A DNA stretch of 59,929 nt from Bacteroidaceae bacterium (GTDB lineage: Bacteria; Bacteroidota; Bacteroidia; Bacteroidales; Bacteroidaceae): positions 1 through 59,929 of the forward strand of contig JAFZWK010000035.1 of assembly GCA_017617335.1 (NCBI GenBank), written 5' to 3'. This document shows, piece by piece, positions 21,710-49,802 of the stretch (positions within the stretch are counted from its first letter, which is position 1; each line of letters opens with the position of its first letter). Made by a program: the position numbers and the translations under genes. The notes under the pieces were generated by a model. It was not told where the DNA came from, did no database searches, and was given only the letters and a program-made list of their open reading frames with translations.

Positions 21710-21811
21710 GACACGTTGAAAGGGGAAAATCGACGTGTCGTCTCTGCGGTTTCGACACGTCAACTTTGTAAACTCGACACGTCGAAATCTCAAAGACAAC
21801 ACGTTGTCTTT
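21710..21811. repeat. 22-bp-periodic palindrome array, locus 1 (five units)
   Basis: Five 8-bp cores begin at 21710, 21732, 21754, 21776 and 21798, each exactly 22 bp apart: GACACGTT, GACGTGTC, GACACGTC, GACACGTC, AACACGTT. The arms are inverted (GAC/GTC or AAC/GTT) around an AC or GT centre. The last unit extends to 9-bp arms, AAAGACAAC and GTTGTCTTT. The 14-bp spacers differ. The array lies in the 770-bp gap between the BACON lipoprotein and GH51 genes. The rest of that gap holds the repeat at 21427-21579, a hairpin at 21889-21931 and AT-rich sequence. Confidence 0.85.
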
Positions 21812-21888
21812 TCATAGGAGAAAGAAGGATTGCTGTTGTTTAACACAACTAGTTAATAATCAGCTAATTATAAAAAAGAATCCTTTAC

Positions 21889-21931
21889 AAGGAAAGAGGT
21901 TGACCGAGAAACAGTCAATCCGTTTTTCCTT
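21889..21931. other. Long imperfect hairpin in the BACON-GH51 gap
   Basis: AAGGAAA (21889-21895) pairs with TTTCCTT (21925-21931), and GGTTGAC (21898-21904) pairs with GTCAATC (21914-21920) with one wobble. A 5-T run is part of the 3' side. It could terminate plus-strand transcripts leaving the lipoprotein gene, but it is 525 bp downstream and the T run falls within the stem, so I leave the role open. Confidence 0.4.
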
Positions 21932-22131
21932 ATCAAAGAAACATCTTCTGAAATCTTGACAAAACAATTTAGTGTTGGTTCCCTCACTTTGTTATTATCC
22001 TTAGTTTCTATCTCTTTCAGGATAGCTTAGTTACGGCTCAACATTATACATTGACCACGAATAATGTATAGTATCTGTTTTTATTGGTTCATTTTCATCT
22101 ATAATGCATGGATACAAGAGTCTGAGATTTC

Positions 22132-23922
22132 TCAGTACTCCACGCAAACTTTCATTGATTTGTCACCTGTCTGCACTACATAGATACCTGGAGATTGCTT
22201 CGCATTTTCATCGACTTTATATCCTGATGTTGTGTAGACATTGAAATTCTCTTCCCCTTCCACGTAAATCCGACCATCTATTACGTAGGGAAAAAGGGGC
22301 GTGGGGTTACCCAACACTTTTTCTGCTGTATCTTTTTCGAACAGGATCAAGACAGTTGCACATGGGTTAAGCGTGACTGTCGGGGAGGTTAGCTTCAGGG
22401 TAGAATTTTTTACCAGAGATCGGTCTTCTTCCGTATTTTCAGCACAAACATCATTGGCTGAAACCTGATAAGCAGAATTCATTTTATATCCATCAGGAAC
22501 CACGACGTTCACTTCCTGTTTTGTATCGTATGATCTGTTTACTATCGAAACCACCAAATGTTCTTCTTCATTCACTACAGCGGCACAATCCACGTAACAA
22601 CGATCCACTTTTTTTCCATCTTGGGAAGAGTCCGTATCACCCTCAATCTTCAGATTTTTTAATTCCAAATCCTTAATGCCTGGCCCTGTTACGTTCACAC
22701 CTACAGCACGACCTGTCATGAATTTACGGTAAAGGTTGTAGAGATAATAGCAGACCGATGGATAAGCATCTTGATTGCCCACTGTCTTTAAAAGACCATG
22801 CCCGTTCACGGGGAAAATATAATTAGCCATCGCAACATAGGGACTGGTTCGAATGAAAACATTCAGCATCCCCGCCATCGCAGCAGCATCGTAGAGCCGT
22901 CGGCCATCCTTTCGGGTGAAGGAGTAACTGCTACCATTGTAAACACTGTGCCTGCAGTTCCACTCGTCGATACTGAATCGGATTGGATTTGAGGTTCGTC
23001 CAACGGAAATGTTGTATGTGGTCAGGTCATTGATGAAGTGACGCAAGTTTGCCTCCACAAGTTCTGGAGCAAACAGGGTCTTTTCCGGATCCATCAATTG
23101 ATTGTCTTTTATTTTTGCAGTCATGTAGTAGTGCATGGTTAGGAAATCGAGGTCTTTACCACATTTTTCAACAACAACCTTATTCCAAGTTCCTGTATGT
23201 CCCACACCTAACAATTTAACTTCAGGATACATTCTCTTAATGGCGGAGGCGTAGAGAGTGAGTTGTTCGGCATATTCTGCTGCAGATTCACCCTTATGGA
23301 ATTTGTTACCGAGATAATTCTCATTGCCGATGCAAAAAAAGCGCACTCCATAGGGGACTGGATAACTGTTATTCCTTCGATAATCTCCCATAAGGGTTCC
23401 TGTCTCACCATTCACGTATTCCACCCAACTTAGGGCTTTTTCCACCGAATGGTCGTAAGTGTTGTTGTTGCCCATAGGGATATTGATGTAGGGTTCAATG
23501 TCGAGTTTTTTACACCAGTTCACAAACTCATCGGTACCGAAAGTGTAGTACTCAGTTCCGCCCCAAATGTGCTCGCTCACTGCAGTTCGCGTGGGACCAA
23601 CACCTTTTTGCCACTCATAGTCATAGATGGCAGTTCCAGCTGGCCAGCGCATTACAGGAATCCTCAGTCTCATCAATTGTTTTGTCACTGACAGATTTTC
23701 CGCACCCTTCTTATCCACCACACCGCCATAAATAACCGCATCGTTGCAATCCTCCAGCATCTGTCCGTATATCATTGAATCTATAGGGGCAAAATGTGAC
23801 AAATCAGATATTGAGACCACAGTTGTTGTTCCTGACACAGTTTGGTTGAAAACAGGTTTCTGGGAATTGATCATCAATGAACAAACAGAAAGGAGTGATG
23901 CGATAAAAAAGATTTTTTTCAT
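22132..23922 (-). CDS. Alpha-L-arabinofuranosidase, GH51, with C-terminal tail
   Basis: A 596-residue secreted enzyme with a signal peptide (MKKIFFIASLLSVCSLMINS). The GH51 barrel includes RWPAGTAIYDYEW near residue 92, acid/base Glu201 in CIGNEN, and nucleophile Glu320 in SIDEWN. It would release arabinose side chains from plant arabinan or arabinoxylan. A C-terminal beta-sandwich follows, and the last 60 residues (YTTSGYKVDE, then SPGIYVVQTGDKSMKV) resemble the short sorting-type tails of the other secreted proteins here. It lies 35 bp downstream of a truncated oxidoreductase on the same strand. Confidence 0.85.
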   Translation of the reverse strand: MKKIFFIASLLSVCSLMINSQKPVFNQTVSGTTTVVSISDLSHFAPIDSMIYGQMLEDCNDAVIYGGVVDKKGAENLSVTKQLMRLRIPVMRWPAGTAIYDYEWQKGVGPTRTAVSEHIWGGTEYYTFGTDEFVNWCKKLDIEPYINIPMGNNNTYDHSVEKALSWVEYVNGETGTLMGDYRRNNSYPVPYGVRFFCIGNENYLGNKFHKGESAAEYAEQLTLYASAIKRMYPEVKLLGVGHTGTWNKVVVEKCGKDLDFLTMHYYMTAKIKDNQLMDPEKTLFAPELVEANLRHFINDLTTYNISVGRTSNPIRFSIDEWNCRHSVYNGSSYSFTRKDGRRLYDAAAMAGMLNVFIRTSPYVAMANYIFPVNGHGLLKTVGNQDAYPSVCYYLYNLYRKFMTGRAVGVNVTGPGIKDLELKNLKIEGDTDSSQDGKKVDRCYVDCAAVVNEEEHLVVSIVNRSYDTKQEVNVVVPDGYKMNSAYQVSANDVCAENTEEDRSLVKNSTLKLTSPTVTLNPCATVLILFEKDTAEKVLGNPTPLFPYVIDGRIYVEGEENFNVYTTSGYKVDENAKQSPGIYVVQTGDKSMKVCVEY

Positions 23923-23957
23923 TTTTTCAATATTGTTTATGCAGGTCGTCAGGTATC

Positions 23958-24989: not shown

Positions 24990-25097
24990 ATCAAAATTCT
25001 ATCTTCCTGCGCTTCGATGGGATTGAGACTATGACGGAATACACTCATATATTTGCAAGTCATAGGGTGCATTTGCAAAATTAAATGCCCGTTTCAC

Positions 25098-25736: not shown

Positions 25737-25764
25737 GTGATATAATATTTGCTCGAACACCAAT

Positions 25765-25802
25765 CCGCCACCATTCAGGGGGAAACCCCTGCTTGGTGGC
25801 GG
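25765..25802. other. Strong two-part hairpin before the DUF2490 gene
   Basis: CCGCCACCA (25765-25773) pairs with TGGTGGCGG (25794-25802), and inside it CAGGGG (25776-25781) pairs with CCCCTG (25786-25791) around a GAAA tetraloop. No T run follows on either strand, so it is not a standard terminator. It sits between the end of the metallophosphoesterase gene and the DUF2490 start, where it could protect or regulate the downstream message. Confidence 0.6.
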
Positions 25803-25835
25803 TTAACAGGACAATATGAAGGAATGTTTTTAGCT

Positions 25836-25946
25836 TCTCATTGAACCAGAACCTTGATTATTAATCGAGATTCTTTCCGTTCGGCCTTTAACTCAAACAA
25901 GTTTGGTTTATGGCTCTCACTTAACCAGAACCTTATTTCCGTTAAT
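25836..25946. repeat. Partial duplication of a gene 3' end
   Basis: The segment at 25836-25865 repeats, with a few changes and gaps, 25915-25946, which encodes the last residues and stop of the metallophosphoesterase (shared core AACCAGAACCTT). The copies are about 79 bp apart. It looks like a degenerate second copy of the sorting-type tail region left after the stop codon. Confidence 0.5.
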
Positions 25947-30890: not shown

Positions 30891-30963
30891 TTTTCATGGT
30901 TGGATTTATGGAATTTTTGTGAAGGGTTAATGATTAGTTTTTCCAGTGAATCGAGAGTGTTGA

Positions 30964-33176: not shown

Positions 33177-34004
33177 TTACTTCGCTTTGTAGTACTGCAT
33201 TGCTTCAGGAAGCCAACGCTGGATGTCAGACACACGCTTGGTGTCACTGGGATGACTGCTCAGGTAAGATTGCAAAGCCCCTCCTGAACTACTTCCACTC
33301 GAAGCCTGACTCATGCGCTTCCAAAAGGTAAGAGCTGTGTTGGGGTCGTAGCCTGCCATCGCAGCAAAGATAAGGCCCATGTGGTCGGCTTCACTCTCGT
33401 TGTCACGGCTGTAGTGAGCATTAAGGAAAGTCAGACCTGTGGAAGCCACAGAAGTGGCAAGGTTGGCAGCGTTTTCTCCCAACTTGGCACCAACGATGGA
33501 GGCACCCACCGAGGCCAGTAGGCTTTGGTTGTTCTGTTTCGACATCTGTTCAGCACTATGTTTGGCTACAGCGTGTGCTATCTCGTGACCCAACACGATA
33601 GCCAAGGATGCTTCGTCTTGAGTGACAGGTAACATGCCTTCGTAAACCACTATCTTGCCACCAGGCATACAGAAAGCGTTGACGGAATTGTTCTGCACCA
33701 GATTGAATTCCCACGCATAGTTCTTCACCTCGTTGGCATAGCCATTGTTGGCGAGATAATTTACCACAGCATTGGCGAGATTCTTTCCTACACGCTGCAC
33801 CATGGCGGTGTTGGTAGCATTGGTTGATATTTTGGCGCTGCTCAGGTATTGCTTGTATTGCGAAGCGCTCAGGCTCAGAATTTGTTCATCTGAGACAGAC
33901 AAACGTTGTTTGCGTCCAGTGATGGGCACCTTGGATGTAGTGCCGCAGGAGGCCAGCATCATCAGTGCAACGGCACTCGTCAAGAAGAATTTGAAACTTT
34001 TCAT
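33177..34004 (-). CDS. M48-family metallopeptidase lipoprotein
   Basis: A 275-residue lipoprotein (lipobox LASC, Cys20) with the zinc-binding motif HEIAH (His140, Glu141, His144) and a downstream glutamate ligand in NESEADHMG. These resemble periplasmic LoiP/YcaL-type peptidases that degrade misfolded outer-membrane proteins. Length is typical. A -7 box lies about 50 bp upstream. After the stop another frame stays open for about 40 codons but has no start codon. Confidence 0.88.
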   Translation of the reverse strand: MKSFKFFLTSAVALMMLASCGTTSKVPITGRKQRLSVSDEQILSLSASQYKQYLSSAKISTNATNTAMVQRVGKNLANAVVNYLANNGYANEVKNYAWEFNLVQNNSVNAFCMPGGKIVVYEGMLPVTQDEASLAIVLGHEIAHAVAKHSAEQMSKQNNQSLLASVGASIVGAKLGENAANLATSVASTGLTFLNAHYSRDNESEADHMGLIFAAMAGYDPNTALTFWKRMSQASSGSSSGGALQSYLSSHPSDTKRVSDIQRWLPEAMQYYKAK

Positions 34005-34320: not shown

Positions 34321-34372
34321 AACACGTTGAAACCGTCGACACAACACGTTGTGTTTGCAAAGTCAACACGTT
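34321..34372. repeat. 22-bp-periodic palindrome array, locus 2 (three units)
   Basis: AACACGTT occurs at 34321, 34343 and 34365, exactly 22 bp apart. The second and third units extend to ACAACACGTTGTGT-like arms. The array lies about 100 bp upstream of the cobalamin riboswitch promoter, between the divergent M48 and TonB receptor genes. Confidence 0.85.
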
Positions 34373-34696: not shown

Positions 34697-36841
34697 ATGA
34701 ATGCAAGAAAAATAGTATTGCTTGTCTTCGTGGCAAGTACTTTTGGTGTATACGGTTTCACTCAAGAACCCGTGGATACCCTCCGTGAAATTGTAATCAC
34801 TGGAACTGGAACTGAACATTTGTTAAAGAATGCACCTGTCCAGACGGAGGTGATATCCCGTCGTATGCTTGACAGTTTCGGAGGCAAGTCGATGGAGGAG
34901 ATTCTGGGTAGCCTGACGGCCTCGCTTGCGTTCAATGAGGGAGATATGGGTAGCCAGATGCAACTCAACGGGTTAGGGAACACCTACATCCTTATTCTGA
35001 TAGACGGCAAGCGTATCCATGGTGATGTAGGTGGCGAGAATGATCTTGGTCTCATTGATCCTCATAATATCGATCGCATTGAGATTGTGAAGGGAGCACA
35101 ATCGGCTCTCTACGGCAGCGATGCCATTGCTGGTGTGATAAACATCATTACAAAGAAGCATCAGGACGAGGGATTTTATTTGGAAAACACAACCCGATAC
35201 GGTTCCTTCAATGACTTGCGTCAGCACAATGGGATAGGAATGATTCAGAAGAAATGGTCCTCGATGACGAATTTCCAACTTCAGCACACCGATGGGTGGC
35301 AGAACACGGCTCAGGAATACACGGAGGCAATGGTAATCAACGATTCAAGGAACAAGACCGTAAACAAGTTTACCAATTGGCAGATAGGTGAACGGCTGAC
35401 CTACCAGCCAATTCACAATATCGATCTCTATGCCGACGGGATGTATTATACAAAAGGTATCTATCGCCCTCAGGACGGACGTTATGCCTCTTGCGACGTT
35501 TACACTTACGATTTGATGTATCGCAACGCAAGTGCATCTGTGGGAGGAAAGTGGAAAGTAAATCCTTCGGACGTAGTGACATTGGATGTGGATTGGAATA
35601 AGCATGCGTATTACTATAAGTATACTGCTACGACATTGACCGATGGTTATGATCCCAATGGAAACTTCACGAATTACTTCCCGTTTTTTGCTGGACAGAA
35701 AAACCTGCAGAGTGACCAGCAACGTCTGATGGTCAACCTCAAAGGAGTGTTCCAATTGCCTTGGAAGAATCTGCTGAGTGCAGGTATGGAATACCGTTAT
35801 GATTACCTGAATGCTCCAATGCGAACGACTACTGGTACAGCTGATGACTGGACATCTGCTCTGTATGCTCAGGATGAATTTAATTTGTTGAAATGGTTTA
35901 ATCTGACAGCAGGTCTTCGTTTCATCGAGAATGGCAGCTTTGGATTCCATGTTACTCCCAAGGTGAGCACAATGTTCTCAATGGGAGATTTCCGCCTTCG
36001 TTTAGGGTGGAGTCAGGGATTCAAGTCACCGGATACCAAGCAGTTGCACTATCGTTATTTGCATACAATGGGTTCAAGCACCTTCTTCAATATGGGCAAC
36101 ACGAATCTTGATCCTCAGACCAACAACTATTGGAGTGCAGGATTGGAATACAGAGGAGAGCGGTTGACAATCTCTGTGACAGGTTATTTGAATGTACTTG
36201 ATAATATGATAACCTTGGTTAATGTGCCTGTAAGCGAGATTCCTAAGGATGTGACTACCTCTTATCTGGGAGATGGAAGCGGCGAGGTGGTGGCCAGGCA
36301 ATATCGTAATATGGAGGATGCCAAGACCTATGGAGTGGACGTTAACTTAAGTTACAAAATCAATCGTGAACTTTTGCTGGGAGGAAACTATAATTATCTT
36401 GACACTGAGGCTCATGTCTACAATACAGATCACAATCGTCTTGATAAGGTGACAATAGACGGTATGGCGCATCATAAATGGAATGCTTATGCCACATGGT
36501 CTCATCGTTTTGTTCCCTTCTATAAGTTGGGATTGAACCTAAGTACTCGAGGTTCAAGTGAACGCTTTTATCAGAACAATGGGAATGGAAAACCTTTCCA
36601 GATATGGCGACTCAACACAACCCACGACTTTGGTCGAGAAGAGAAGAAACTTTCCTATCGAGTAGAGTTGGGGATAGACAATATTTTGGGTTATGTTGAC
36701 CGCACGATGCATCCCTATCATTTGGGAACCACCAATGCAGGCCGTACAGTTTACGCTACATTCAGTATAAAATTCAGACAAGGAAAACGTTTTATTAACT
36801 TAACATCAACAAAAAAACAAACAGATTATGATGAAGATTAA
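34697..36841 (+). CDS. btuB: TonB-dependent receptor, BtuB-like, under cobalamin riboswitch
   Basis: The 714-residue outer-membrane receptor has a signal peptide, a short TonB-box-like region (DTLREIVITGTGT), a plug domain (ILILIDGKRIHGD, GAQSALYGSDAIAGVINIIT) and a 22-strand-type barrel ending in aromatic strands. The cobalamin riboswitch directly upstream makes a corrinoid the likely substrate. Unlike SusC proteins it has no carboxypeptidase-like extension, so it is the classical BtuB type. Its end overlaps the cbiK start by 14 bp, tying uptake to the next gene. Confidence 0.9.
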   Translation: MNARKIVLLVFVASTFGVYGFTQEPVDTLREIVITGTGTEHLLKNAPVQTEVISRRMLDSFGGKSMEEILGSLTASLAFNEGDMGSQMQLNGLGNTYILILIDGKRIHGDVGGENDLGLIDPHNIDRIEIVKGAQSALYGSDAIAGVINIITKKHQDEGFYLENTTRYGSFNDLRQHNGIGMIQKKWSSMTNFQLQHTDGWQNTAQEYTEAMVINDSRNKTVNKFTNWQIGERLTYQPIHNIDLYADGMYYTKGIYRPQDGRYASCDVYTYDLMYRNASASVGGKWKVNPSDVVTLDVDWNKHAYYYKYTATTLTDGYDPNGNFTNYFPFFAGQKNLQSDQQRLMVNLKGVFQLPWKNLLSAGMEYRYDYLNAPMRTTTGTADDWTSALYAQDEFNLLKWFNLTAGLRFIENGSFGFHVTPKVSTMFSMGDFRLRLGWSQGFKSPDTKQLHYRYLHTMGSSTFFNMGNTNLDPQTNNYWSAGLEYRGERLTISVTGYLNVLDNMITLVNVPVSEIPKDVTTSYLGDGSGEVVARQYRNMEDAKTYGVDVNLSYKINRELLLGGNYNYLDTEAHVYNTDHNRLDKVTIDGMAHHKWNAYATWSHRFVPFYKLGLNLSTRGSSERFYQNNGNGKPFQIWRLNTTHDFGREEKKLSYRVELGIDNILGYVDRTMHPYHLGTTNAGRTVYATFSIKFRQGKRFINLTSTKKQTDYDED

Positions 36842-38001: not shown

Positions 38002-39153
38002 ATGAGGAAGAGATTACTGCTTATATACCTTGCTGTTTTAGGTGTGATGTCTTGCGGAAAAAGAATGCCGAGGGAACATGTCACCTTAGCCGATGAATTG
38101 TTTCAGGAGCAGGATTCCGTCTTGGCTCATGCTGATGAATTCCCAGATACGGTTTCTTTTTTTTATGCGCGCGGGTTATGTGTGCGCTATGAACAGGATG
38201 GCATCCACGTGTCCATTAAGAATCCTGACCCCTCAGCTCATGGCAGTCGTACTGAAGAAATTCTAATCACGAAACCATCTAAACGGTTTATCTGTACCAC
38301 AGCTCTTCAATTGGGCAATTTTGAGGTACTGGGATTGGAGGATCGTATCGTAGGAATGAATTCGTTGCGCAACCTCTTTTCTCCTCGTATGAAGGAGCAG
38401 ATGCAGGATGGGCGTACTGTACAAATAGGCAAGGAAGGCAATTTCGACCTCGAGACCGTGATTGCTGCACAGCCCGATTACATCTTTGTGAGTGCTTCCA
38501 AACATGGTGGTTTCGAGGCGCTCAAGGAGTGTGGCATTCCCCTGATCTCTCACCATGGCTACAAGGAGACCAATCCGTTGGGGCAGGCTGAATGGATCAA
38601 ATTGATAGGTCTGCTGACAGGCGAGACTCGTAGAGCAAATGCTGTGTTTGCCGATATCGAGCGTAAGTATTTGGCCCTGAGAGACGAAGTGTTGAAGATG
38701 GATTCTACACAACTGCGCCCCTCCATCATCAGTGGTCGACAGATTCGTGATGGATGGTATATCGTGGGTGGACGAAGTTATATGGCTCAGATTTTCCATG
38801 ATGCAGGGGCTCAGTACATCATGTGCGACAACGAGGACTCTGGTGGCACCACGCTTGACTTTGAGGCTGTCTATGCTCAAAGCATTCATGCTGATTTCTG
38901 GCAAATCGATGGTGCCTTTGATGGGGATTTCACTTTGGAGCAGTTAGCTCAGGAGGATGAACGCTATACCACATTGGATGCTTATCGAAGAGGTCATGTG
39001 CTCTTCTGCAATTTCTCCCAGACTCCTTATCGTGAGCTGGCGGGTGTGCAGCCCCATCTGGTTCTGGCAGACTTCGTGAAGGCTATGCATCCTGAATTGC
39101 TGCCTCATTACATTCCTCAATACTACAAACTACTTAAGCATGAAGATCAGTAA
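38002..39153 (+). CDS. btuF: BtuF-like substrate-binding lipoprotein of a cobalamin/iron-type ABC importer
   Basis: A 383-residue lipoprotein (lipobox VMSC, Cys18) with the periplasmic-binding fold of the BtuF/FhuD family: FICTTALQLGNFEVLGLEDRIVG, then QPDYIFVSASKHGG, and a C-terminal lobe with PHLVLADFVKAMHPE. The context (TonB receptors, BtuC-like permease, corrin enzymes) supports cobalamin or cobinamide as ligand. Its last 14 bp overlap the second TonB receptor gene. The matching permease is at 47260, after the biosynthetic genes. Confidence 0.85.
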   Translation: MRKRLLLIYLAVLGVMSCGKRMPREHVTLADELFQEQDSVLAHADEFPDTVSFFYARGLCVRYEQDGIHVSIKNPDPSAHGSRTEEILITKPSKRFICTTALQLGNFEVLGLEDRIVGMNSLRNLFSPRMKEQMQDGRTVQIGKEGNFDLETVIAAQPDYIFVSASKHGGFEALKECGIPLISHHGYKETNPLGQAEWIKLIGLLTGETRRANAVFADIERKYLALRDEVLKMDSTQLRPSIISGRQIRDGWYIVGGRSYMAQIFHDAGAQYIMCDNEDSGGTTLDFEAVYAQSIHADFWQIDGAFDGDFTLEQLAQEDERYTTLDAYRRGHVLFCNFSQTPYRELAGVQPHLVLADFVKAMHPELLPHYIPQYYKLLKHEDQ

Positions 39154-41215
39154 AGTCCTGCTATGCGTCTTATTGGCCATGAAGGGTGGCTGCATCGTTG
39201 CACAAACAGCGGACTCTGTGCAGACGATTAACCTCAATCCTGTAGTGATTACGGGTACTGGGACGTATCACAAGGCCGATAATTCACCTGTGGCCGTGAG
39301 GGTTATATCAGCCAAGGAACTGCGCGATGTGGGAGCTACTGATTTGCAGGATGCCCTGACACGCTTGACCACCAATATCACCACTCACACCAACGGTATG
39401 GGTACCTTTGTCAACTTCAATGGAGTGAGCGATGATTACATCTTGATTCTTGAGAATGGAAAACGCGTGAGTGGGGACGATCGTTGGAGCCGCATGAATC
39501 TCAACAACATCAAGCGTATTGAGATATTCAGCGGAGCAGCCAGCGCGCTATATGGAAGCGATGCCATTGCTGGCGTGATCAATATCATTACTGACGACAG
39601 CAAGGATAGTGTAAATGCAAACGTGTATACCAAAGTCATGAATCATGGTCGCTTGGAACATGACATTAATGTCGATGTGAACGCAGGTCGATTCTCCAGC
39701 CAAACGTCCTATGACTACCGCCAAGCCGATAATTGGCAGGTCAATCATTATCAGGCTTTCGACGAGGATGGCGAGCAAGTGCTGAAGTTGACAGGACGTC
39801 CCATGTCAACAGGCTTTCACAGCCATAACGTGAGCGAGAAAATGGAGTGGAAGTTTGATGATAAATGGTCTGCCTACATTCGTGGAAATTACTATGACAA
39901 CACGACACAACGCCCTCAGAGTGCTACCTATTTCACTCAGTCAAAGGATAAGACAACAGGAGGATACAAGTATAGTGAGCGTCAGGCATACACGTATGAC
40001 CTTCATCACAAGTCTTATGTTTACGGAGGTGGAGCCCGCTGGCAACCCTCCAGTAGAGTTCACGTCTATCTGGATGCCTATAGCGACAACTTCTCATCAC
40101 ACTACGACTATTGGCAAACTGCAGGAAAGGAGGCCTACGACGAGACTCGCAAGCGGACTCATTATACCAACGAGACCTTGCGTGGAATCTTTCGCCTGAC
40201 CAGTTGGAACAAGTTGTCTGCAGGGACAGAAATGGTGCAGGAATCCCTGACGAGCCAAAGCGACAATATCGATGGCGAGCATACAAATACCTACAATATC
40301 TTTGCCCAGGATGAAGTACAGATTATGAAGGGACTGGAGGCAGTCGTCGGACTCCGCTACACCTACAATGACAACTTTGGTTCCGACCTGACACCCAATG
40401 CAGGCCTTTTCTATCACGTCGCAGGTTTCCGCTTCAGAGCCAGCTATGCTGGAGGATACCGCACTCCCACGCTCTCGCAACTCTATGGAACAGATCAAGC
40501 CAAGACAGCTGCGAGATATACAATCAACAACGCTGAGCTCACGCCTGAGAAGAACGACTTCTGGAACTTCAACGCTGAGTACAGCAATCATTGGATGAGC
40601 CTGAGCGTGAGCGGATTCATCAATAAGATTCGCGACATGATCAACTATCGAACGCTTTCTCAGCAGGAGATAGAAGCCTCGACCTACCTGACCCAAATCT
40701 ACGACGAGGGATGGACCACCATTCGCCAGCGTGACAATATTGATCGAGCCACCTTGCGTGGCGTGAGTACAAATGTGAAGTTTCTGCTTCCCTATGGATT
40801 TGCATTTGGTGGAGGCTACACCTTAACACGTTCACTTGCCAGTTTCAACACGTTGAGTCAGTCAACTCAACACGTTGTCTTTACGGAGACTCCTGTTGAC
40901 AAATCCGTTCGCGACGTGGGAAACGTGAATGCCACATGGGATCGCGGATGGGGCAATTATCATCTCAATGTCTGTTTGAACGGGCACATGCAAGGTCGCC
41001 GTTACAGCAGCACGTATGGCTATGCTGATGGTTACAGCCAATGGGACCTTTCCACTCGCCATACGGTTTATCTGAAGCAGGTAACCCTGGAGCCTGGCAT
41101 TGGTGTGGAAAATATTTTCAACAAGCGCGACACCTCGTATTGGAGTTCCAACTTTTCCACTATCAATCCTGGGCGTTCGCTCTATGTAAGTTTGACACTG
41201 AAATTTCATGACTGA
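39140..41215 (+). CDS. Second TonB-dependent receptor, BtuB-like
   Basis: A 691-residue outer-membrane receptor related in layout to the riboswitch-controlled one: a TonB-box-like start (QTINLNPVVITGTGTYHKAD), a plug (ILILENGKRVSGD, SGAASALYGSDAIAGVINI) and a barrel ending LYVSLTLKFHD. Substrate is probably a corrinoid, as it lies between btuF and cobJ with overlaps at both ends. Residues 563-579 (SLASF through QHVVF) are encoded by a 22-bp-periodic repeat array, which looks inserted into an extracellular-loop region without breaking the frame. Confidence 0.88.
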   Translation: MKISKVLLCVLLAMKGGCIVAQTADSVQTINLNPVVITGTGTYHKADNSPVAVRVISAKELRDVGATDLQDALTRLTTNITTHTNGMGTFVNFNGVSDDYILILENGKRVSGDDRWSRMNLNNIKRIEIFSGAASALYGSDAIAGVINIITDDSKDSVNANVYTKVMNHGRLEHDINVDVNAGRFSSQTSYDYRQADNWQVNHYQAFDEDGEQVLKLTGRPMSTGFHSHNVSEKMEWKFDDKWSAYIRGNYYDNTTQRPQSATYFTQSKDKTTGGYKYSERQAYTYDLHHKSYVYGGGARWQPSSRVHVYLDAYSDNFSSHYDYWQTAGKEAYDETRKRTHYTNETLRGIFRLTSWNKLSAGTEMVQESLTSQSDNIDGEHTNTYNIFAQDEVQIMKGLEAVVGLRYTYNDNFGSDLTPNAGLFYHVAGFRFRASYAGGYRTPTLSQLYGTDQAKTAARYTINNAELTPEKNDFWNFNAEYSNHWMSLSVSGFINKIRDMINYRTLSQQEIEASTYLTQIYDEGWTTIRQRDNIDRATLRGVSTNVKFLLPYGFAFGGGYTLTRSLASFNTLSQSTQHVVFTETPVDKSVRDVGNVNATWDRGWGNYHLNVCLNGHMQGRRYSSTYGYADGYSQWDLSTRHTVYLKQVTLEPGIGVENIFNKRDTSYWSSNFSTINPGRSLYVSLTLKFHD
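40825..40876. repeat. 22-bp-periodic palindrome array, locus 3 (three units, inside a gene)
   Basis: AACACGTT occurs at 40825, 40847 and 40869, exactly 22 bp apart, within the second TonB receptor gene. Because 22 is not a multiple of 3, each copy is read in a different frame (as part of LTRS, FNTL and QHVV), but three units make 66 bp, which keeps the frame. Confidence 0.85.
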
Positions 41216-43782: not shown

Positions 43783-45548
43783 TTTTAATAGTATACGTCA
43801 CTGAGGTTGGCCGCCAGTTGGCTCAACGGATACTTCAGGAATTACCCTCTTGTCACATGATGCCTGTCAAGGCTTTTTCAGCCGAGAATTTTCGCAACAG
43901 CGAAGGAATCATCTTCATTGGCGCCTTAGGTATCTGTGTCCGTACGATAGTCCCTTACATAAAGGCCAAACAGAACGATCCTGCCGTGCTATGTGTGGAC
44001 AGTGGTGGTAACTATGTCATTAGTGTGTTGAGCGGTCATGTGGGGGGAGCCAACGAGTTGACTAAACGGATCTCACACGTTCTGGGATGCCAACCTGTGA
44101 TTACTACTCAGAGCGACAATCAGGGGCTGTGGGCTCTCGACCTGTTGGCTGAGCAATATGGATGGCAGGAGGAACATAGTGGAGGCAGGATTAATCACAT
44201 CATCTTCCATTATGTAGGCAAGAAGCCTACAGTCCTGAAGTTGGATGTCCGAGGGGATAAGGGGGCGCAGTATATGGAGCGTACCCGTCAGTCTCATGTC
44301 AGTCTATATGGCGGGGAAGTCATTCCTGAAGAGAGTCTACTTGTTGCCGTCAGTCCCTATTTCCGTCCCGCCGAGGAGAATTTCAAGAGCACTCTTGTCT
44401 ATCATCCTCCTGTCTTGCATCTGGGTGTGGGATGTGCTCATGATTGTGACCCTTCCGATTTGCCTCTTCTCATTCGTGAGAAGCTTCACGAACATAATCT
44501 CAGTGAGAAGAGCATTGCCACCATCGATACCATTCCCCTGAAAGCTGACGAGCCTCTTATGCAAGCTCTTCAGATGGCTTTCCCATGGGCACGTTTCGTG
44601 GTTCATCTTAACAAGGAGTTAGAAGGCATTACAGTTCCTAATCCCAGCGAATATGCCCAGAAATATATAGGTATTCCCAGTGTGAGTGAGGCGTGTGCTC
44701 TGACGTATGGTCCCCTGTTGATGGAAAAAGAGAAAATTATGGGGAGGTGCACGATAGCTGTCTCTATCTCTCAGGAAAAGGCTCTTGGAGGGCATGTCGA
44801 AATTGTGGGAGCTGGTCCTGGCGACCCAGAGTTGGTGAGTCTTCGTGGCATTCGTTTCCTGCAACAGGCTGACCTCATCCTTTATGCTGGTTCTCTGGTT
44901 CCAGAGGAACTGACACGTTATGCGAAGGCAGGTTGCACAGTCCGCTCCTCAGCCTCTATGGATTTGGAGGAACAATTTGCCCTGATGAAGGAGTTTTATG
45001 ACAAAGGTCTGTTGGTGGTGCGTCTCCACACAGGTGATCCCTGTATCTATGGTGCCATTCAGGAGCAGATGGCCTATTTCGACCAGCATGGTATGCATTA
45101 CCACATCACTCCAGGAATCAGCAGCTTTTTGGCTGCGGCGGCTGAGTTGCGCAGTCAGTTTACTATTCCTGAAAAGTGTCAGACCATCATCCTGACACGT
45201 GGTGAGGGGCGTACTTTGATGCCTGAACTCGAAAAGCTTCATCTCTTGGCTGCTCACCAGAGTACTATGTGTATCTTTCTCAGCGCTTCGTTGGCCCAGC
45301 AGGTTCAGGATGAACTTCTCGCTGGCGGCTATCCTCCCGAAACTCCTGTAGCGGCCTGCTACAAGCTCACATGGCCTGACCAGCAGATATACAGAGGTCA
45401 GCTACAGAATCTGGCGCAGATCATTGCCGATCATCATCTCACTCTGACCACCATGATCGTGGTGGGTGAGGCGATTGACAACCGCGAAGGACTGAGCCGA
45501 CTCTACGACGGGCATTTCACTCACATGTTCAGAAAAGGTCGACCATGA
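43779..45548 (+). CDS. cbiG-cobM: CbiG-CobM fusion: cobalt-precorrin-5A hydrolase and precorrin-4 C11-methyltransferase
   Basis: A 589-residue bifunctional protein. Residues 1-330 are CbiG, which opens the delta-lactone and releases acetaldehyde (GALGICVRTIVPYI, VLSGHVGGANELT). Residues about 338-589 are the C11-methyltransferase CobM/CbiF (EIVGAGPGDPELVSL at 341-355; RLHTGDPCIYGA). CbiG belongs to the early-cobalt pathway, so the route here is anaerobic. Overlaps of 4 bp join it to both neighbours. Confidence 0.92.
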   Translation: MILIVYVTEVGRQLAQRILQELPSCHMMPVKAFSAENFRNSEGIIFIGALGICVRTIVPYIKAKQNDPAVLCVDSGGNYVISVLSGHVGGANELTKRISHVLGCQPVITTQSDNQGLWALDLLAEQYGWQEEHSGGRINHIIFHYVGKKPTVLKLDVRGDKGAQYMERTRQSHVSLYGGEVIPEESLLVAVSPYFRPAEENFKSTLVYHPPVLHLGVGCAHDCDPSDLPLLIREKLHEHNLSEKSIATIDTIPLKADEPLMQALQMAFPWARFVVHLNKELEGITVPNPSEYAQKYIGIPSVSEACALTYGPLLMEKEKIMGRCTIAVSISQEKALGGHVEIVGAGPGDPELVSLRGIRFLQQADLILYAGSLVPEELTRYAKAGCTVRSSASMDLEEQFALMKEFYDKGLLVVRLHTGDPCIYGAIQEQMAYFDQHGMHYHITPGISSFLAAAAELRSQFTIPEKCQTIILTRGEGRTLMPELEKLHLLAAHQSTMCIFLSASLAQQVQDELLAGGYPPETPVAACYKLTWPDQQIYRGQLQNLAQIIADHHLTLTTMIVVGEAIDNREGLSRLYDGHFTHMFRKGRP

Positions 45549-47278
45549 TACTCATCTTTGGAGGTACAACGGAAGGGCGCATGGCCGTGGAGGTGTGTGA
45601 AGTTGCAGGTAACCCCTTCTACTATTCTACTAAGGGAGGTTCTCAGGAGGTTCCTCTCCATTATGGCGTGCGTCTTACAGGAGCCTTGACTGCCGATGGG
45701 ATACGTCAGTTCGTTGCTGAGCACGAGGTGCGCTGTATCGTAGATGCTGCCCATCCCTTTGCTCAAGAGCTTCATGCCTGCGTTGCTGATGCGGGCCTAC
45801 CTGTCATCCGACTCGAACGCACCTTTTGCCACCATTATTCAGAAATGAATTATTGCAAGGACTTTACAGATGCCGTGACTCGTCTCAACGTCTCGCCTAC
45901 CAAGTGCCTGTTGGCCCTGTCTGGAGTGAACACCATCCCCCAATTACGCGACTACTGGCAGCATCATCGCACCTTCTTCCGTATCCTGCGCAGACCTGAA
46001 AGTATCCACTTGGCTTGCCAGAATCGGTTTCCCTCGCAGAATCTCATCTACTATGCTGATGAAATGTCCCTTCCGACCAGAGAGCAGGAAAAGGAACTCA
46101 TGCAGCAGGTGGGTTGCGATGCAATCCTGACCAAGGAAAGCGGCCGAAGCGGAGGTTTCGAGGCCAAGGTAGAGGCAGCCCTGCAATTGGGTTTGCAAGT
46201 CTACGTGGTGAGTCGTCCTCAGTTGCCTGCCGAGTGGATCTATGTGACAGGGCAACATGGGTTGCGTCGAGCCATCGAACGTCTGGTGCCTGACTTCTTT
46301 CCGCTTCGCACGGGTTTTACTACAGGGGCTTGCGCTACGGCAGCAGTCAAGGCAGCCCTCATCTCCCTTCTCTCTGACGAGCAACCTGACGAGGTTCATT
46401 TCTCCCTGCCTGATGGTGAGGTAATGGCCATCCCAGTGGAAGTCAGTCGTAAAGGTGTGGCTATGGTTGTGAAGGATTTTAGCGACGACCCTGACGTGAC
46501 ACGTGGTTGCCGTATCACGGCTCAGGTGGAATGGGGACACGATGGAATCCGCTTCCTGCGAGGTAATGGGGTGGGACGCGTCACGTTGCCAGGCTTGGGT
46601 ATTCCTGTAGGGGAGCCTGCCATCAATCCTACACCTCGTCAGATGATCATTCAGGAGGTACGGAATCTCACAGATTCCGATGTGGACATCACTCTTTCTG
46701 TGGAGGATGGTGAGCAGCTTGCCCTGAAGACTTTCAATCCTCGTGTGGGCGTGCTGGATGGAATCAGCATCATCGGCACCTCGGGCATCGTCTCTCCGCT
46801 CAGTAACGAGGCTTTTGTCCAAAGCATCGAGCGCGAATTGCAGGTAGCGCGAGCCATCGGATGCCGACAGATTGGTTTTGCTTCTGGCCGACGTGGAGAA
46901 GAGGCGCTTCATGCCACAGAGCCTGACCTGCGCGTGATTCATTATGGCAACCTCATTGGTCGCAGCCTTCAGATGGCTCACGAGCAAGGTTTCCAGCGTG
47001 CTGTGGTGGGCATCATGATAGGCAAGGCTGTCAAGTTGGCAGAAGGGAACCTCGACACCCATTCGCACAAAGTAGTGATGAACAAGGACTTCCTGCGTCA
47101 AGTGGCTGGACCCGTTGACGCTGCCAAGATAGACGGAATCACCCTGGCTCGCGAGCTCTGGCAGGTCATGCCTCCCTCTTTCTTTCAGAAAATCAGGGAA
47201 CTTTGCTATCAACATTGTAGAACCGTATTCCCTTCAGGGGAACTTGAAATCCGACTTATATGCGACAATCCAGCATGA
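45545..47278 (+). CDS. cobK-cbiD: CobK-CbiD fusion: precorrin-6A reductase and C1-methyltransferase
   Basis: A 577-residue bifunctional enzyme. Residues 1-245 are the NADPH-dependent CobK/CbiJ reductase (ILIFGGTTEGR at 2-12; IVDAAHPFAQE near 65-75). From residue 251 it is CbiD, the cobalt-precorrin-5B C1-methyltransferase (RTGFTTGACATAAVKAAL, 255-272). The pairing of these consecutive or near-consecutive steps follows the fusion pattern of this cluster. Its end overlaps the permease gene by 19 bp. Confidence 0.92.
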   Translation: MILIFGGTTEGRMAVEVCEVAGNPFYYSTKGGSQEVPLHYGVRLTGALTADGIRQFVAEHEVRCIVDAAHPFAQELHACVADAGLPVIRLERTFCHHYSEMNYCKDFTDAVTRLNVSPTKCLLALSGVNTIPQLRDYWQHHRTFFRILRRPESIHLACQNRFPSQNLIYYADEMSLPTREQEKELMQQVGCDAILTKESGRSGGFEAKVEAALQLGLQVYVVSRPQLPAEWIYVTGQHGLRRAIERLVPDFFPLRTGFTTGACATAAVKAALISLLSDEQPDEVHFSLPDGEVMAIPVEVSRKGVAMVVKDFSDDPDVTRGCRITAQVEWGHDGIRFLRGNGVGRVTLPGLGIPVGEPAINPTPRQMIIQEVRNLTDSDVDITLSVEDGEQLALKTFNPRVGVLDGISIIGTSGIVSPLSNEAFVQSIERELQVARAIGCRQIGFASGRRGEEALHATEPDLRVIHYGNLIGRSLQMAHEQGFQRAVVGIMIGKAVKLAEGNLDTHSHKVVMNKDFLRQVAGPVDAAKIDGITLARELWQVMPPSFFQKIRELCYQHCRTVFPSGELEIRLICDNPA

Positions 47279-48273
47279 TGATTCTGCTCATTCTGAGCAT
47301 TCCTTTTTTTGCCCTTCTCAATCTGACGATAGGCTCAGTAGAGATTCCTCTCAATGAGGTGTTCAGCATTCTCGCTGGTCAGGGCTCAGATTCTCAGGTG
47401 TGGATCAACATAGTGTTGCGCACTCGCCTCCCTCAGACGCTCACGGCCATTGCCTGTGGGTCAGGTCTCGCGGTGGCAGGTTTGGAGATGCAGACCGTTT
47501 TCCATAACCCGTTGGCTGGCCCCTCTGTATTGGGTATCTCAAGTGCCGCCAGTTTGGGCGTGGCTTTTGTCGTCCTGTTGAATGGAACCGTTGGAGGAGG
47601 CATCATGACTCAATTCGGCTTCTTCGGCAACACGGCTCTCACGTTGGCTGCCATGATGGGAGCTGTGGGAGTCATGTCGATCATCGTGTTCCTCTCCCAG
47701 CGTGTGCGCAACAACGTCACGCTGCTCATTGTGGGCGTGCTGATAGGCTACATTGCATCAGCCATCATCGGAGTGCTCAAGTATTTCAGCAGCGAGGAGG
47801 ATATCCGCGCATACGTCATTTGGGGATTGGGTAGTTTTGCTCGAGTGACGGGTGGTCAAGTGTATGTCTTCGTGGCGTTGATGGCCGTTATCCTACCCTT
47901 CACGCTTCTTCTGGTCAAGCCTCTCAACATGTTGCTTCTGGGTGAGCGATACGCTGTCAACCTGGGGCTCAACCTTCGTCGTGCCCGCCTTTTCATCATC
48001 CTCTCGGCCAGCGTGCTGATAGCCATCGTCACGGCCTATTGCGGCCCCATCATGTTCCTTGGTCTGGCCGTTCCCCACATTTGCCGAGGTCTCTTTCACA
48101 CGTCCGATCATCGCCTCTTGCTTCCTGGTTCGCTCTTCTGTGGTGCCTCGCTGGCTCTCGTCTGCAATCTCGTTGCCCGCCTGCCAGGCTTTGAGGGTGC
48201 GCTACCCATCAACTCTGTAACTTCGCTCATCGGAGCCCCTGTGGCCCTTTATGTCCTGCTTAGAAAGAAATGA
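47260..48273 (+). CDS. btuC: BtuC-like permease of a cobalamin/iron-siderophore ABC importer
   Basis: A 337-residue FecCD-family permease with about ten membrane segments. It carries typical motifs: LRTRLPQTLTAIACGSGLAVAG, NPLAGPSVLGISSAASLG and the late FLGLAVPHICRGLF. Placed among corrin genes and matching the BtuF-like protein upstream, it probably imports cobalamin or cobinamide. The ATPase (BtuD) is not adjacent and must be encoded elsewhere. It overlaps the next gene by 4 bp. Confidence 0.9.
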   Translation: MRQSSMMILLILSIPFFALLNLTIGSVEIPLNEVFSILAGQGSDSQVWINIVLRTRLPQTLTAIACGSGLAVAGLEMQTVFHNPLAGPSVLGISSAASLGVAFVVLLNGTVGGGIMTQFGFFGNTALTLAAMMGAVGVMSIIVFLSQRVRNNVTLLIVGVLIGYIASAIIGVLKYFSSEEDIRAYVIWGLGSFARVTGGQVYVFVALMAVILPFTLLLVKPLNMLLLGERYAVNLGLNLRRARLFIILSASVLIAIVTAYCGPIMFLGLAVPHICRGLFHTSDHRLLLPGSLFCGASLALVCNLVARLPGFEGALPINSVTSLIGAPVALYVLLRKK

Positions 48274-48941
48274 AACATATCCCTTCCCTGCTCATCGGAG
48301 CAGCATCGTCCAATAGTGGAAAGACCACAATCACCATGGGGTTACAGCGTGCTCTCGTGCGCAGGGGTCTTCAGGTGCAGCCTTTCAAATGCGGGCCTGA
48401 CTACATCGATCCCATTTTCCATCAGATGGCCACTGGTCGCGAGTCCGTCAATCTCGATACCTTCCTCTCTTCGGCCGACCATATCCGCCAGCTCTTCCAT
48501 CAGTATGCAAAGGGGGCCGACGTGTGCATTATCGAAGGTGTAATGGGCCTCTTCGACGGCTACTCCGCTTCCAAGGGGAGCAGCGCCGAGATAGCCATGC
48601 TGCTCGATGTGCCTGTCGTGCTGGTCGTAAATGCCCGCTCTATGGCTTACAGCGCAGCGCCACTTCTCTACGGCTACCTCCATTTCCAGCCTCGCTTGCG
48701 CATCGCGGGTGTTATCTTCAATATGGTGGGGTCAAGCCAACACGTTGAGTCGCTGAAGTTGACGTGTCAGGATGTGGGAGTCGACTGCTTGGGGTTTCTG
48801 CCTCGAAATCCTCGTCTTTCCATCCCCAGCCGTCATTTGGGTCTGACCGTCTCTGAGCAGCAGGGAATGGAGCAGCTCATCTGTCTGGCTGCCGATGAAG
48901 TTGAGCAGCATGTGGAACTGGATAAAATCCTTGCCTTATGA
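48270..48941 (+). CDS. cbiA: Cobyrinate a,c-diamide synthase, N-terminal synthetase half
   Basis: The 223 residues match the first half of CbiA/CobB, which amidates the a and c side chains of cobyrinate using ATP and glutamine. The P-loop GAASSNSGKTT is at residues 10-20, with CGPDYIDPIFH and IIEGVMGLFDG following. CbiA is usually about 430-460 residues in one chain; here it ends after DKILAL at a TGA that overlaps the ATG of the next gene, which holds the glutaminase half. A two-unit repeat array is embedded near the end. Both halves look intact, so a two-subunit enzyme or a recent frameshift are both possible. Confidence 0.85.
   Translation: MKHIPSLLIGAASSNSGKTTITMGLQRALVRRGLQVQPFKCGPDYIDPIFHQMATGRESVNLDTFLSSADHIRQLFHQYAKGADVCIIEGVMGLFDGYSASKGSSAEIAMLLDVPVVLVVNARSMAYSAAPLLYGYLHFQPRLRIAGVIFNMVGSSQHVESLKLTCQDVGVDCLGFLPRNPRLSIPSRHLGLTVSEQQGMEQLICLAADEVEQHVELDKILAL
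48739..48768. repeat. 22-bp-periodic palindrome array, locus 4 (two units, inside cbiA)
   Basis: AACACGTT at 48739 and GACGTGTC at 48761 begin exactly 22 bp apart and have opposite centre orientation. They lie in the coding sequence of the cbiA N-terminal half, encoding SQHVESLKLTCQ. The spacer starts GAGTC, as does one spacer at locus 3. Confidence 0.55.
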
Positions 48942-49522
48942 ATATCTGTGTAGCTCGCGACGAGGCTTTCAATTTCACTTATCGCGCCAATTTGGATTCG
49001 CTGGCTCGTCTGGGACAGGTCAGCTTCTTCTCACCGCTTCGCGACTCTCGCCTGCCTGCCTGCTCTCTACTTTATCTGCCTGGCGGCTATCCTGAGTTAT
49101 ATGCCCAGCAACTTGCGGCCAACGACTCCATGCGATGCAGTATCCGCGATTTTGCTCTCTCTAATGGACATGTTTATGCTGAGTGCGGAGGTTTTATGTA
49201 TTTGTGTCAGGAGATAGATGGCCAGCCTATGTGCGGAGTGTTTCCTCTGCGGGCCACCATGCAGGATGCGCGTCTTCACTTGGGTTATCGCCAGATGGAG
49301 TGGCAGGGTCGGCGACTTCGCGGTCATGAATTCCACTATAGTAGGGTGTGTCCCTCCACGTTGCCTGCCGATGTTACCGCTCTCGTTCTCCAGCAGACAG
49401 CCAGTGGTCAGCCTGTTGATACTCCACTCTATCTCTTTCATCATGTCATAGCTGGCTACACCCATTGGTATTGGGCAGAAGGGGACGTTCCCTTCCCTTT
49501 CTTTCCTGACTTGTTGATGTAA
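48938..49522 (+). CDS. cbiA: Cobyrinate a,c-diamide synthase, C-terminal glutaminase half
   Basis: These 194 residues are the second half of CbiA: the linking motif ICVARDEAFNFTY at 3-15, the class-I-like (GATase-3) domain with nucleophile Cys83 in YAECGGFMYL, and a catalytic-type His in HEFHYS near 130-135. It would supply ammonia from glutamine to the synthetase half. The ATGA overlap with the first half allows coupled translation. No further corrin gene follows; the next 570 bp are non-coding. Confidence 0.85.
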   Translation: MNICVARDEAFNFTYRANLDSLARLGQVSFFSPLRDSRLPACSLLYLPGGYPELYAQQLAANDSMRCSIRDFALSNGHVYAECGGFMYLCQEIDGQPMCGVFPLRATMQDARLHLGYRQMEWQGRRLRGHEFHYSRVCPSTLPADVTALVLQQTASGQPVDTPLYLFHHVIAGYTHWYWAEGDVPFPFFPDLLM

Positions 49523-49728
49523 TGGGAAAGATGTAAAACTGAAAGCAGAAAAGGGATGTTCACCCTTGCAGCCCTTTGATAAGGAAAAGACGAAAGTTTG
49601 TGTGTGTCTTTAAGGGCCGAAATAAGTTCAGAAACCCCTCTCCTAGGGAGGTTCAGGGATACTTGGATTCCATTTTTACTCTCACTTCTTTTGGACGGAA
49701 ACAGGGAAACAGATGCGACCTCAGACAC

Positions 49729-49802
49729 AACGTGTTGAAACCTCAAAGATAACGTGTTGAAACCTTAAAGACAACGTGTTGTGTTGACGATTTCAACGTT
49801 TA
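49729..49802. repeat. 22-bp-periodic palindrome array, locus 5 (three units plus one degenerate)
   Basis: AACGTGTT occurs at 49729, 49751 and 49773, exactly 22 bp apart, with a decayed copy (AACGTTTA) at 49795. All have the GT centre, opposite to loci 2 and 3. The first two 14-bp spacers are nearly identical (GAAACCTCAAAGAT and GAAACCTTAAAGAC). The array lies in the 570-bp gap after cbiA; the rest of the gap is AT-rich and shows no gene or clear terminator. Confidence 0.85.

What the first reader, a model, noticed from the sequence alone, without database searches (positions are those of the whole stretch)
21710..49802. Dispersed arrays of an interrupted palindrome at exact 22-bp spacing
Five separate loci (21710-21811, 34321-34372, 40825-40876, 48739-48768, 49729-49802) contain 8-bp cores of the form AAC-AC-GTT or GAC-AC-GTC. 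Within each locus the start-to-start distance is always exactly 22 bp (5, 3, 3, 2 and 3 units, plus one decayed copy in phase). Spacers vary while the period is fixed, so this is not a simple tandem duplication. 22 bp is close to two DNA turns, so every core would face the same side of the helix. The AC or GT centre gives each core an orientation: loci 2 and 3 all AC, locus 5 all GT, loci 1 and 4 mixed. I know of no named element with this design. It could be a cooperative protein-binding array, a mobile or expanding repeat, or a nucleoid-organising site.
Basis: seen in the sequence. Interest (0 to 1): 0.75.

Follow-up and report, generated by a model that had tools for sequence, protein, structure and literature searches.

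The report
Regularly spaced 22-bp palindrome arrays
Short palindromes repeated exactly every 22 bases dot the chromosomes of rumen Bacteroidales at rather even distances, and the same palindromes sit in front of genes for an unstudied HU-like DNA-binding protein family, which suggests a hidden chromosome-organising system.

Summary
All five loci check out (11 core pairs at exactly 22 bp, none in 300 simulated windows). In 460 kb of the same genome there are 36 such arrays; no distance but 22 and its multiples recurs. A core-blind detector finds the same 22-bp design clearly in six sampled genomes of the genus and weakly in three smaller samples, with other palindromes in other lineages, but not in four other families. 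In four of five genomes arrays are more evenly spaced than chance; most lie behind genes. One intragenic array arose without insertion. The likely partner is the HU-HIG family (PF18291): 23 of 38 HU-HIG genes carry an array within 250 bp upstream, against 55 of 845 genes, mostly with the genome's own palindromes in five genomes. The link recurs in named Prevotella, Porphyromonas and other Bacteroidales. Best explanation: HU-HIG proteins bind the arrays side by side, control their own genes, and use dispersed arrays as chromosome anchors. Binding and chromosome function are inferred, not shown.

The parts
21710..21805 (.). Array 1: five units (21710 GACACGTT, 21732 GACGTGTC, 21754 GACACGTC, 21776 GACACGTC, 21798 AACACGTT), between two convergent genes (18706-21363 +, 22132-23922 -)
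34321..34372 (.). Array 2: three AACACGTT units (34321, 34343, 34365), between a divergent M48 peptidase gene (33177-34004 -) and a TonB receptor gene (34697-36841 +); relative G052 keeps a four-unit array in the same intergenic region (L218)
40825..40876 (.). Array 3: three AACACGTT units (40825, 40847, 40869) inside a TonB receptor gene; G052 and G009 have the same three cores (24 of 24 core bases, 20 of 28 spacer bases, no gap in the array span)
48739..48768 (.). Array 4: two units (48739 AACACGTT, 48761 GACGTGTC) inside the CbiA-domain gene; ungapped alignment with G052 and G009, which lack these cores but have two cores 44 bp apart some 350-390 bp upstream in the same gene
49729..49802 (.). 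Array 5: three AACGTGTT units (49729, 49751, 49773) plus a decayed in-phase copy AACGTTTA at 49795; intergenic, about 206 bp behind the gene ending at 49522; no counterpart at this place in G052
39140..41215 (+). TonB-dependent receptor gene that hosts array 3 (PF00593, PF07715)
48270..48941 (+). CbiA-domain gene of the cobalamin cluster that hosts array 4 (PF01656)

Best explanation
Each array is a row of adjacent binding sites for a dimeric, sequence-specific DNA-binding protein. Each 22-bp unit (about two helical turns) is one palindromic site, so neighbouring dimers sit on one face of the helix and bind cooperatively. The protein is most likely a member of the HU-HIG family (PF18291, HU/IHF fold), which is expanded in these bacteria. 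HU-HIG gene clades carry arrays with their own palindromes at the promoter or leader, so they probably repress themselves. The dispersed arrays, by extrapolation roughly 150-190 in the window's genome, lie mostly behind gene ends at rather even distances (mean 7-24 kb depending on the genome), and probably act as anchor points that shape or partition the chromosome. Shown by computation: the arrays, their period, their spacing, some conservation, and their link to HU-HIG genes with matching palindromes. Inferred: binding, cooperativity, self-repression, chromosome function.
For: (1) Exact 22-bp period with variable spacers: 78 pairs at 22 in 460 kb and no other recurring distance besides its multiples. 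(2) The core-blind detector at lag 22 finds 29, 8, 33, 10, 25 and 22 arrays in G000, G052, G114, G008, G012 and G024, against means of 0.3-1.7 at other lags; in four other families (160 kb) 1 against 0.86. (3) Spacing is more even than random intergenic placement: G114 CV 0.46 vs 1.07 and 0 of 28 intervals under 3 kb (11.3 expected); also G012, G000 and G052. (4) Placement: of 103 arrays 26 convergent, 55 co-directional (median 53 bp from the upstream gene's end, nearer to that end in 40), 10 divergent, 12 inside genes. (5) Array 3 keeps 24 of 24 core bases in G052 and G009, spacers 20 of 28. (6) HU-HIG genes: 23 of 38 have an array within 250 bp upstream vs 55 of 845 genes, Fisher p 1e-16. 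(7) Operator palindromes match dispersed arrays of the same genome: 29 of 29 in G000, 76% of 33 in G114, 82% of 22 in G024, 60% of 25 in G012, against 3.5-6% of random 80-bp segments. (8) Replicated in named Bacteroidales: at least 11 of 27 HU-HIG loci. (9) PF18291 gives 8-13 matches in the eight genus genomes tested vs 1-3 in the four families without arrays. (10) The predicted protein has an HU/IHF fold.
Against: No binding data exist. In genome G009, which is rich in AACACGTT arrays, no intact HU-HIG gene was found; one contig starts inside an HU-HIG leader and a 136-bp gene fragment lies elsewhere, so assembly dropout is likely but not proven. 15 of 38 HU-HIG genes lack an array within 250 bp. 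8 of 33 arrays in G114, 10 of 25 in G012 and 4 of 22 in G024 match no sampled operator of their own genome, and in the small samples only 0 of 3 (G016), 1 of 3 (G001) and 0 of 2 (G003) do. Even spacing was not significant in G024. The whole span of array 3 is no better conserved than its gene (84%), only its cores are. In one search nine of 27 loci had no array within 350 bp, among them the three of RGIG9746 and both of Porphyromonas S15M. HU-family proteins are usually weakly sequence-specific (recalled). The near-identical HU-HIG copies of G000 and G052 are not independent. In Prevotella jejuni and SUG325 the single scan hits have the sequence of HU-HIG leaders, so dispersal there is not shown.
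Confidence: 0.6

Rival explanations
1. The arrays are ordinary operators: HU-HIG (or a relative) binds them only to tune the neighbouring genes, for instance as a roadblock at gene ends, with no role in chromosome architecture.
For: Arrays lie upstream of HU-HIG genes; 7 of 21 operators have TAnnTTTG beside the array against 10 of 272 dispersed array ends; dispersed arrays lie close to gene ends.
Against: 26 of 103 arrays lie between convergent genes and 12 inside genes, only 10 between divergent ones; even spacing is not expected of a regulon; in one gene the array lies 350-390 bp away from that of relatives.
Confidence: 0.2
2. Another, unidentified regulator binds the arrays, and HU-HIG genes are merely part of its regulon.
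For: No binding test was done; G009 has arrays but no intact HU-HIG gene in its assembly.
Against: In G114, G012 and G024 different HU-HIG clades carry different palindromes, and most of these match dispersed array families of the same genome; a separate regulator would have to be duplicated alongside each clade. ParB_N (PF02195), the one other family tested, is single-copy in all 12 genomes.
Confidence: 0.12
3. The arrays are mobile or expanding repeats (MITE or minisatellite, like BrickBuilt of Porphyromonas gingivalis).
For: Some adjacent units share identical spacers and Porphyromonas canoris has a very long 22-bp array before an HU-HIG gene, so local expansion happens.
Against: 106 of 121 spacers are distinct; array 4 sits in a gene that aligns without gaps to orthologues lacking it there. 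Array 3 is no test, since both orthologues also have it.
Confidence: 0.05
4. The arrays work as RNA: hairpins, terminators or processed small RNAs.
For: Palindromic units near gene ends with T-rich ends.
Against: Flanks that would extend the palindromes are avoided: across GT-GT spacers 3 identical flanks vs 13.6 expected, across cores 24 vs 41 (not so for AC-GT spacers, 5 vs 4.4). No Rfam family matches in 7 loci, 140 kb. Arrays inside coding genes keep the same design.
Confidence: 0.03

Closest known systems
HU/IHF (DNABII) nucleoid proteins and their sites
   Same: The candidate protein has the HU/IHF fold and the profile hits E. coli HU-alpha weakly; IHF is known to have specific sites (recalled).
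   Different: Rows of palindromes at a fixed 22-bp step with clade-specific cores are not known to me for HU or IHF (recalled).
MatP/matS, Noc and ParB/parS systems (recalled)
   Same: Dispersed palindromic sites of a dedicated DNA-binding protein along the chromosome.
   Different: Those sites are single palindromes with a conserved sequence; here 2-5 phased units whose sequence changes between related lineages. ParB_N is single-copy in all 12 genomes tested.
BIME/REP elements of enterobacteria (recalled)
   Same: Arrays of palindromic units near the ends of genes.
   Different: No fixed 22-bp step there; here spacers differ between arrays, and at least one array (array 4) evolved in place inside a gene.
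BrickBuilt minisatellite of Porphyromonas gingivalis (PMC4596501; passages read)
   Same: 19 elements, mostly intergenic, most with tandem 23-nt repeats; one borders a gene annotated as a DNA-binding protein (PF00216).
   Different: Described as a transposable element with terminal inverted repeats, leader and tail; the flanks of the G000 arrays show no conserved ends beyond a decaying in-phase site, and spacers vary.
Iterons of plasmid replication origins (recalled)
   Same: Direct repeats near 22 bp that place bound proteins on one face of DNA.
   Different: Dispersed over the chromosome in dozens of places, not one origin.

Membership tests
HU/IHF superfamily, HU-HIG family PF18291 (the candidate protein) | match to the PF18291 profile above its cut-off | tested here: met
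   L265 and L277 proteins: 73.5 and 74.5 bits, cut-off 26.2
HU/IHF superfamily, HU-HIG family PF18291 (the candidate protein) | HU/IHF fold | tested here: met
HU/IHF superfamily, HU-HIG family PF18291 (the candidate protein) | binds DNA of the array | not testable with these tools
   needs a binding assay
Dispersed nucleoid-organising sites (matS-, Noc- or parS-like) | many sites spread along the chromosome | tested here: met
   36 arrays in 460 kb of G000; 33 in 240 kb of G114
Dispersed nucleoid-organising sites (matS-, Noc- or parS-like) | one dedicated binding protein, effect on chromosome folding or segregation | not testable with these tools
   needs ChIP-seq, Hi-C or gene removal
MITE / BrickBuilt | insertion into a previously intact site | tested here: inconclusive
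   array 4 aligns without gaps to orthologues that lack it there; for array 3 both orthologues have it; other arrays not tested
CRISPR array | identical long repeats with unique spacers of about 30 bp (recalled) | tested here: not met
   8-bp cores, 14-bp spacers with a shared consensus
Known structured RNA family | match to an Rfam model at the gathering score | tested here: not met
   0 matches in 7 loci, 140 kb

The most novel reading that the evidence does not exclude
A previously undescribed chromosome-organising system of Bacteroidales: paralogous HU-fold proteins, each reading its own palindrome, polymerise on helically phased 22-bp arrays placed at even intervals along the chromosome, each controlling its own supply through an array at its promoter. 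The palindrome 'language' is replaced between related species while the 22-bp step and the spacing rule are kept, so function lies in the step and the spacing rather than in the sequence.
Probability: 0.4. Interest if true: 0.92.

Novelty: new variant of a known kind. Interest (0 to 1): 0.82.

Why it matters
HU-HIG proteins are abundant in Bacteroidales (2-28 matches in each of the twelve genomes), yet I found no function or binding site for them in the held literature (searches; the arrays themselves). If they read these arrays, an HU-fold family would be shown to have strict, changeable DNA specificity, its targets could be predicted from sequence in uncultured genomes, and chromosome organisation in Bacteroidales would become directly testable. 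The replacement of many dispersed sites between related species would also be a striking case of protein-DNA co-evolution.

Tried and rejected
RNA elements: no Rfam match, and flanks that would extend the palindromes are avoided. Mobile element: most spacers not copied, no insertion at array 4; array 3 turned out to be no test because both relatives have it. ParB/Noc expansion: ParB_N single-copy in 12 of 12 genomes. Specificity residues: HU-HIG paralogues with different palindromes differ all over the protein, no clear patch. Promoter beside array: 7 of 21 operators, five of the seven from G000/G052, so not a general feature as scored. Even spacing failed in G024 (CV 0.81; p 0.30 uniform, 0.13 intergenic). 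Phage contigs: 22 stretches of IMG/VR hold the AACNNGTT pattern; not followed up. G011 (20 kb) showed no array; G039 yielded 2.4 kb and was not used. G005 had the design in the lag test on 28 kb but holds runs of N and was left out. Of 27 HU-HIG loci, 11 have an array ending 0-350 bp upstream, three are unclear (L316, L317, L322), nine have none within 350 bp, and four (L309, L321, L323, L326) were read in a wrong frame by my script and are untested; three loci that duplicate G016 were left out. The 40 loci were picked by hand from the 85 matches in eight genus genomes, mostly the stronger full-length ones; the two copies whose neighbouring arrays gave the idea (G000 C11, G012 C3) are not among them. 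In one search the upstream hits of L268 and L279 are AT-rich and the 543-bp one of L277 is not array-like; L276 is a doubtful family member (long branch). The 23 of 38 is my count; its control genes come from five genomes, the HU-HIG genes from eight. Gene calls come from simple home-made ORF callers. Deep forks of the HU-HIG tree are weak; G012 and G024 have near-identical HU-HIG proteins, so their shared operators may be plain inheritance. Papers: Burroughs et al. 2017 on HU superfamily clades is recalled only; the look-up failed. Seen as passages only: PMC5771137, PMC3969353, PMC4596501, PMC11035120; all other papers as search listings.
Full report
Observation. The five loci are real. The window holds 24 cores; core pairs occur at 22 (11), 44 (6), 66 (2) and 88 bp (1) and at no other distance up to 200 bp, and 300 simulated windows gave no pair at 22. 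A two-core model built from the window arrays gives 193 matches at E up to 1 in the window's genome, with only 150 of 1,451 candidates scored and both strands counted. In 459,929 bp (the window plus 400 kb taken) there are 200 cores, 78 pairs at 22, 52 at 44, 21 at 66 and 6 at 88; six other distances up to 300 bp occur once each. They form 36 arrays of 2-5 units: 4 of two, 10 of three, 14 of four and 8 of five, near-cores in phase counted.

Anatomy. A unit is a 22-bp imperfect palindrome: core RAC-AC/GT-GTY, then mostly G, two variable bases, A/T-rich positions, and a second symmetry point (often TTTGCAAA-like) midway between cores. Neighbouring centres tend to point the same way (86 of 121 pairs). 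Flanks that would extend the palindromes are avoided: GT-GT spacers 3 identical flanks vs 13.6 expected, GT-AC 0 vs 5.7, AC-AC 7 vs 11.1, but AC-GT 5 vs 4.4; across the same core 24 vs 41. Beyond the array ends a weak trace of the next in-phase site remains. Most spacers differ (106 distinct of 121); a few neighbours are identical, so units sometimes duplicate locally.

Not only AACACGTT. With the window model only 5 of 139 genomes of the genus ring at 1e-5; G008 and G020 ring more weakly. A search blind to the core shows why: other members use other palindromes with the same 22-bp step. Examples are CCGCGTGCGG and ATACATGTAT in G114, TTCTGCAGAA and GGTTAACC in G012 and G024, GACGCGCGTC in G001. 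A calibrated detector (three units, palindromic cores, any sequence) finds 29, 8, 33, 10, 25 and 22 arrays at lag 22 in G000, G052, G114, G008, G012 and G024, against means of 0.3-1.7 at other lags. G001, G003 and G016 give 3, 2 and 3 in samples of 40-59 kb; in G016 one other lag reached 4, so that sample is weak. The four other families (160 kb) give 1, against 0.86. No array was seen in 20 kb of G011.

Place on the chromosome. Among 103 arrays in 1.28 Mb of five genomes, 26 lie between convergent genes, 55 between co-directional ones (median 53 bp behind the upstream gene; nearer to that gene's end in 40 of 55), 10 between divergent ones and 12 inside genes; only about 8% of this DNA is intergenic. 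Spacing is more even than random intergenic placement in G114 (CV 0.46 vs 1.07; 0 of 28 intervals under 3 kb, 11.3 expected; no simulation of 3,000 as extreme), G012 (0.56 vs 1.09), G000 (0.59 vs 0.92, p 0.004) and G052 (0.38 vs 0.88, p 0.008), but not in G024 (0.81, p 0.13). Arrays of different palindrome families are pooled in this test, so they appear to share one spacing rule.

Evolution. Array 3 lies in a TonB receptor gene. Orthologues in G052 and G009 (83-84% DNA identity) have the same three cores with no gap in the array span: 24 of 24 core bases kept, 20 of 28 spacer bases; the span as a whole (84%) is no better kept than the gene. This shows persistence, not origin. Array 4 lies in a CbiA-domain gene and aligns without gaps to G052 and G009, which lack it there but have two cores 44 bp apart some 350-390 bp upstream in the same gene; so array 4 arose by substitution. 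Array 2 has a four-unit counterpart in the same intergenic region of G052. Elsewhere two more dispersed G000 arrays have partners in G052; two G052 arrays have no exact-core partner in G000, though the core-blind detector calls an array about 0.5 kb from one of these places; array 5 has none at its place. Arrays are thus often kept, and sometimes shift.

The candidate protein. PF18291 (HU-HIG) gives 8-13 matches in the eight genus genomes tested and 1-3 in the four other families (some matches are ordinary HU or fragments, and the profile also rings in 9 of 14 control genomes). Of the 85 genus matches I fetched 40 loci of eight genomes. 24 of 40 have an array within 600 bp, all upstream, and of 28 arrays in these 196 kb only one lies downstream. 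Counting arrays within 250 bp, 23 of 38 genes with enough upstream DNA have one, against 55 of 845 genes generally (Fisher 1e-16) and 8 of 185 small genes; near-identical copies are not independent. The operator palindromes are largely those of the genome's dispersed arrays: 29 of 29 arrays of G000, 88% of 8 in G052, 76% of 33 in G114, 60% of 25 in G012 and 82% of 22 in G024 match an operator unit of their own genome, against 3.5-6% of random 80-bp segments; between the G000/G052/G114 group, which shares a related palindrome, and the G012/G024 group it is 0-21%. In G016, G001 and G003, with 2-3 arrays each, only 1 of 8 arrays matches. Different HU-HIG clades in one genome carry different palindromes. 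L275 (G114) and L284 (G024) share TACATGTA and fall in one well-supported clade, together with L304 whose leader differs; L274 and L280/L283 are 76-78% identical yet have different palindromes.

Replication. Twelve genomes reached through the pattern scan all have HU-HIG matches, 2-28 each; one of them is G016 again. Of 27 loci examined in the other eleven, at least 11 have an array ending 0-350 bp upstream, in Prevotella jejuni, Prevotella SUG325, Porphyromonas canoris and the MAGs E20_bin320, RGIG8271, UBA1189, Tb.RUG.90 and IMSAGC_004; three are unclear, nine have none and four were misread. In P. jejuni and SUG325 the single scan hits have the sequence of HU-HIG leaders, so dispersal there is unproven. 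P. canoris has a very long 22-bp array before one HU-HIG gene.

Genus-wide check. At E 1e-40 the L265 protein rings in 30 of 139 genomes, among them six of the seven that ring with the AACACGTT model (G000, G052, G114, G005, G008, G020); only G000 and G052 have close copies of 86% identity or more.

Against. The seventh, G009, is rich in AACACGTT arrays but shows only ordinary or degenerate HU matches. Its contig C98 starts inside an HU-HIG leader and a 136-bp gene fragment at 98.5% identity lies in the middle of C10. In G000 five of eight copies lie at contig ends. Loss at assembly gaps is likely, not proven. 15 of 38 HU-HIG genes lack an array within 250 bp. No binding was measured.

Reading. 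The best account is a network of cooperative HU-HIG binding arrays with self-repression and a role in chromosome layout. Confidence is higher for HU-HIG as the binder than for the chromosome role. No paper found describes these arrays (searches; listings and passages of four papers seen). A passage in PMC4596501 mentions 22- and 23-nt tandem repeats in P. gingivalis W83 without places, which may be related.

Noticed in passing
L334 720-1440: Porphyromonas canoris has a very long 22-bp tandem array (AAAAAAAGTTTCATGGGCAAGG type) directly before an HU-HIG gene, reminiscent of the 23-nt BrickBuilt minisatellite of P. gingivalis.
   Followed up: partly
G000 contigs C43, C70, C9, C66, C29 and C7; G009 C98: HU-HIG genes or their leaders sit at contig ends, as expected of near-identical multi-copy genes that break assemblies.
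   Followed up: partly
L337 around 1783-1918: G009 carries a 136-bp fragment of an HU-HIG gene at 98.5% identity inside other sequence.
   Followed up: no
L113, L123, L131, L142, L145, L159 right array ends: In E20_bin320 several arrays end with a recurring sequence like GCGGACAAACG, a possible cap.
   Followed up: no
L133, L166, L177: In three of five RGIG8271 arrays the outermost arms are complementary, so the whole array forms one large inverted repeat.
   Followed up: no
window 45545-49522: Cobalamin cluster with a CbiJ-CbiD fusion (45545-47278) and the CbiA and GATase_3 domains encoded as two overlapping ORFs (48270-48941, 48938-49522).
   Followed up: no
L243-L264: 22 stretches of viral contigs hold the three-unit AACNNGTT pattern at 22-bp steps; whether they are prophage flanks, phage arrays or chance is unknown.
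   Followed up: no
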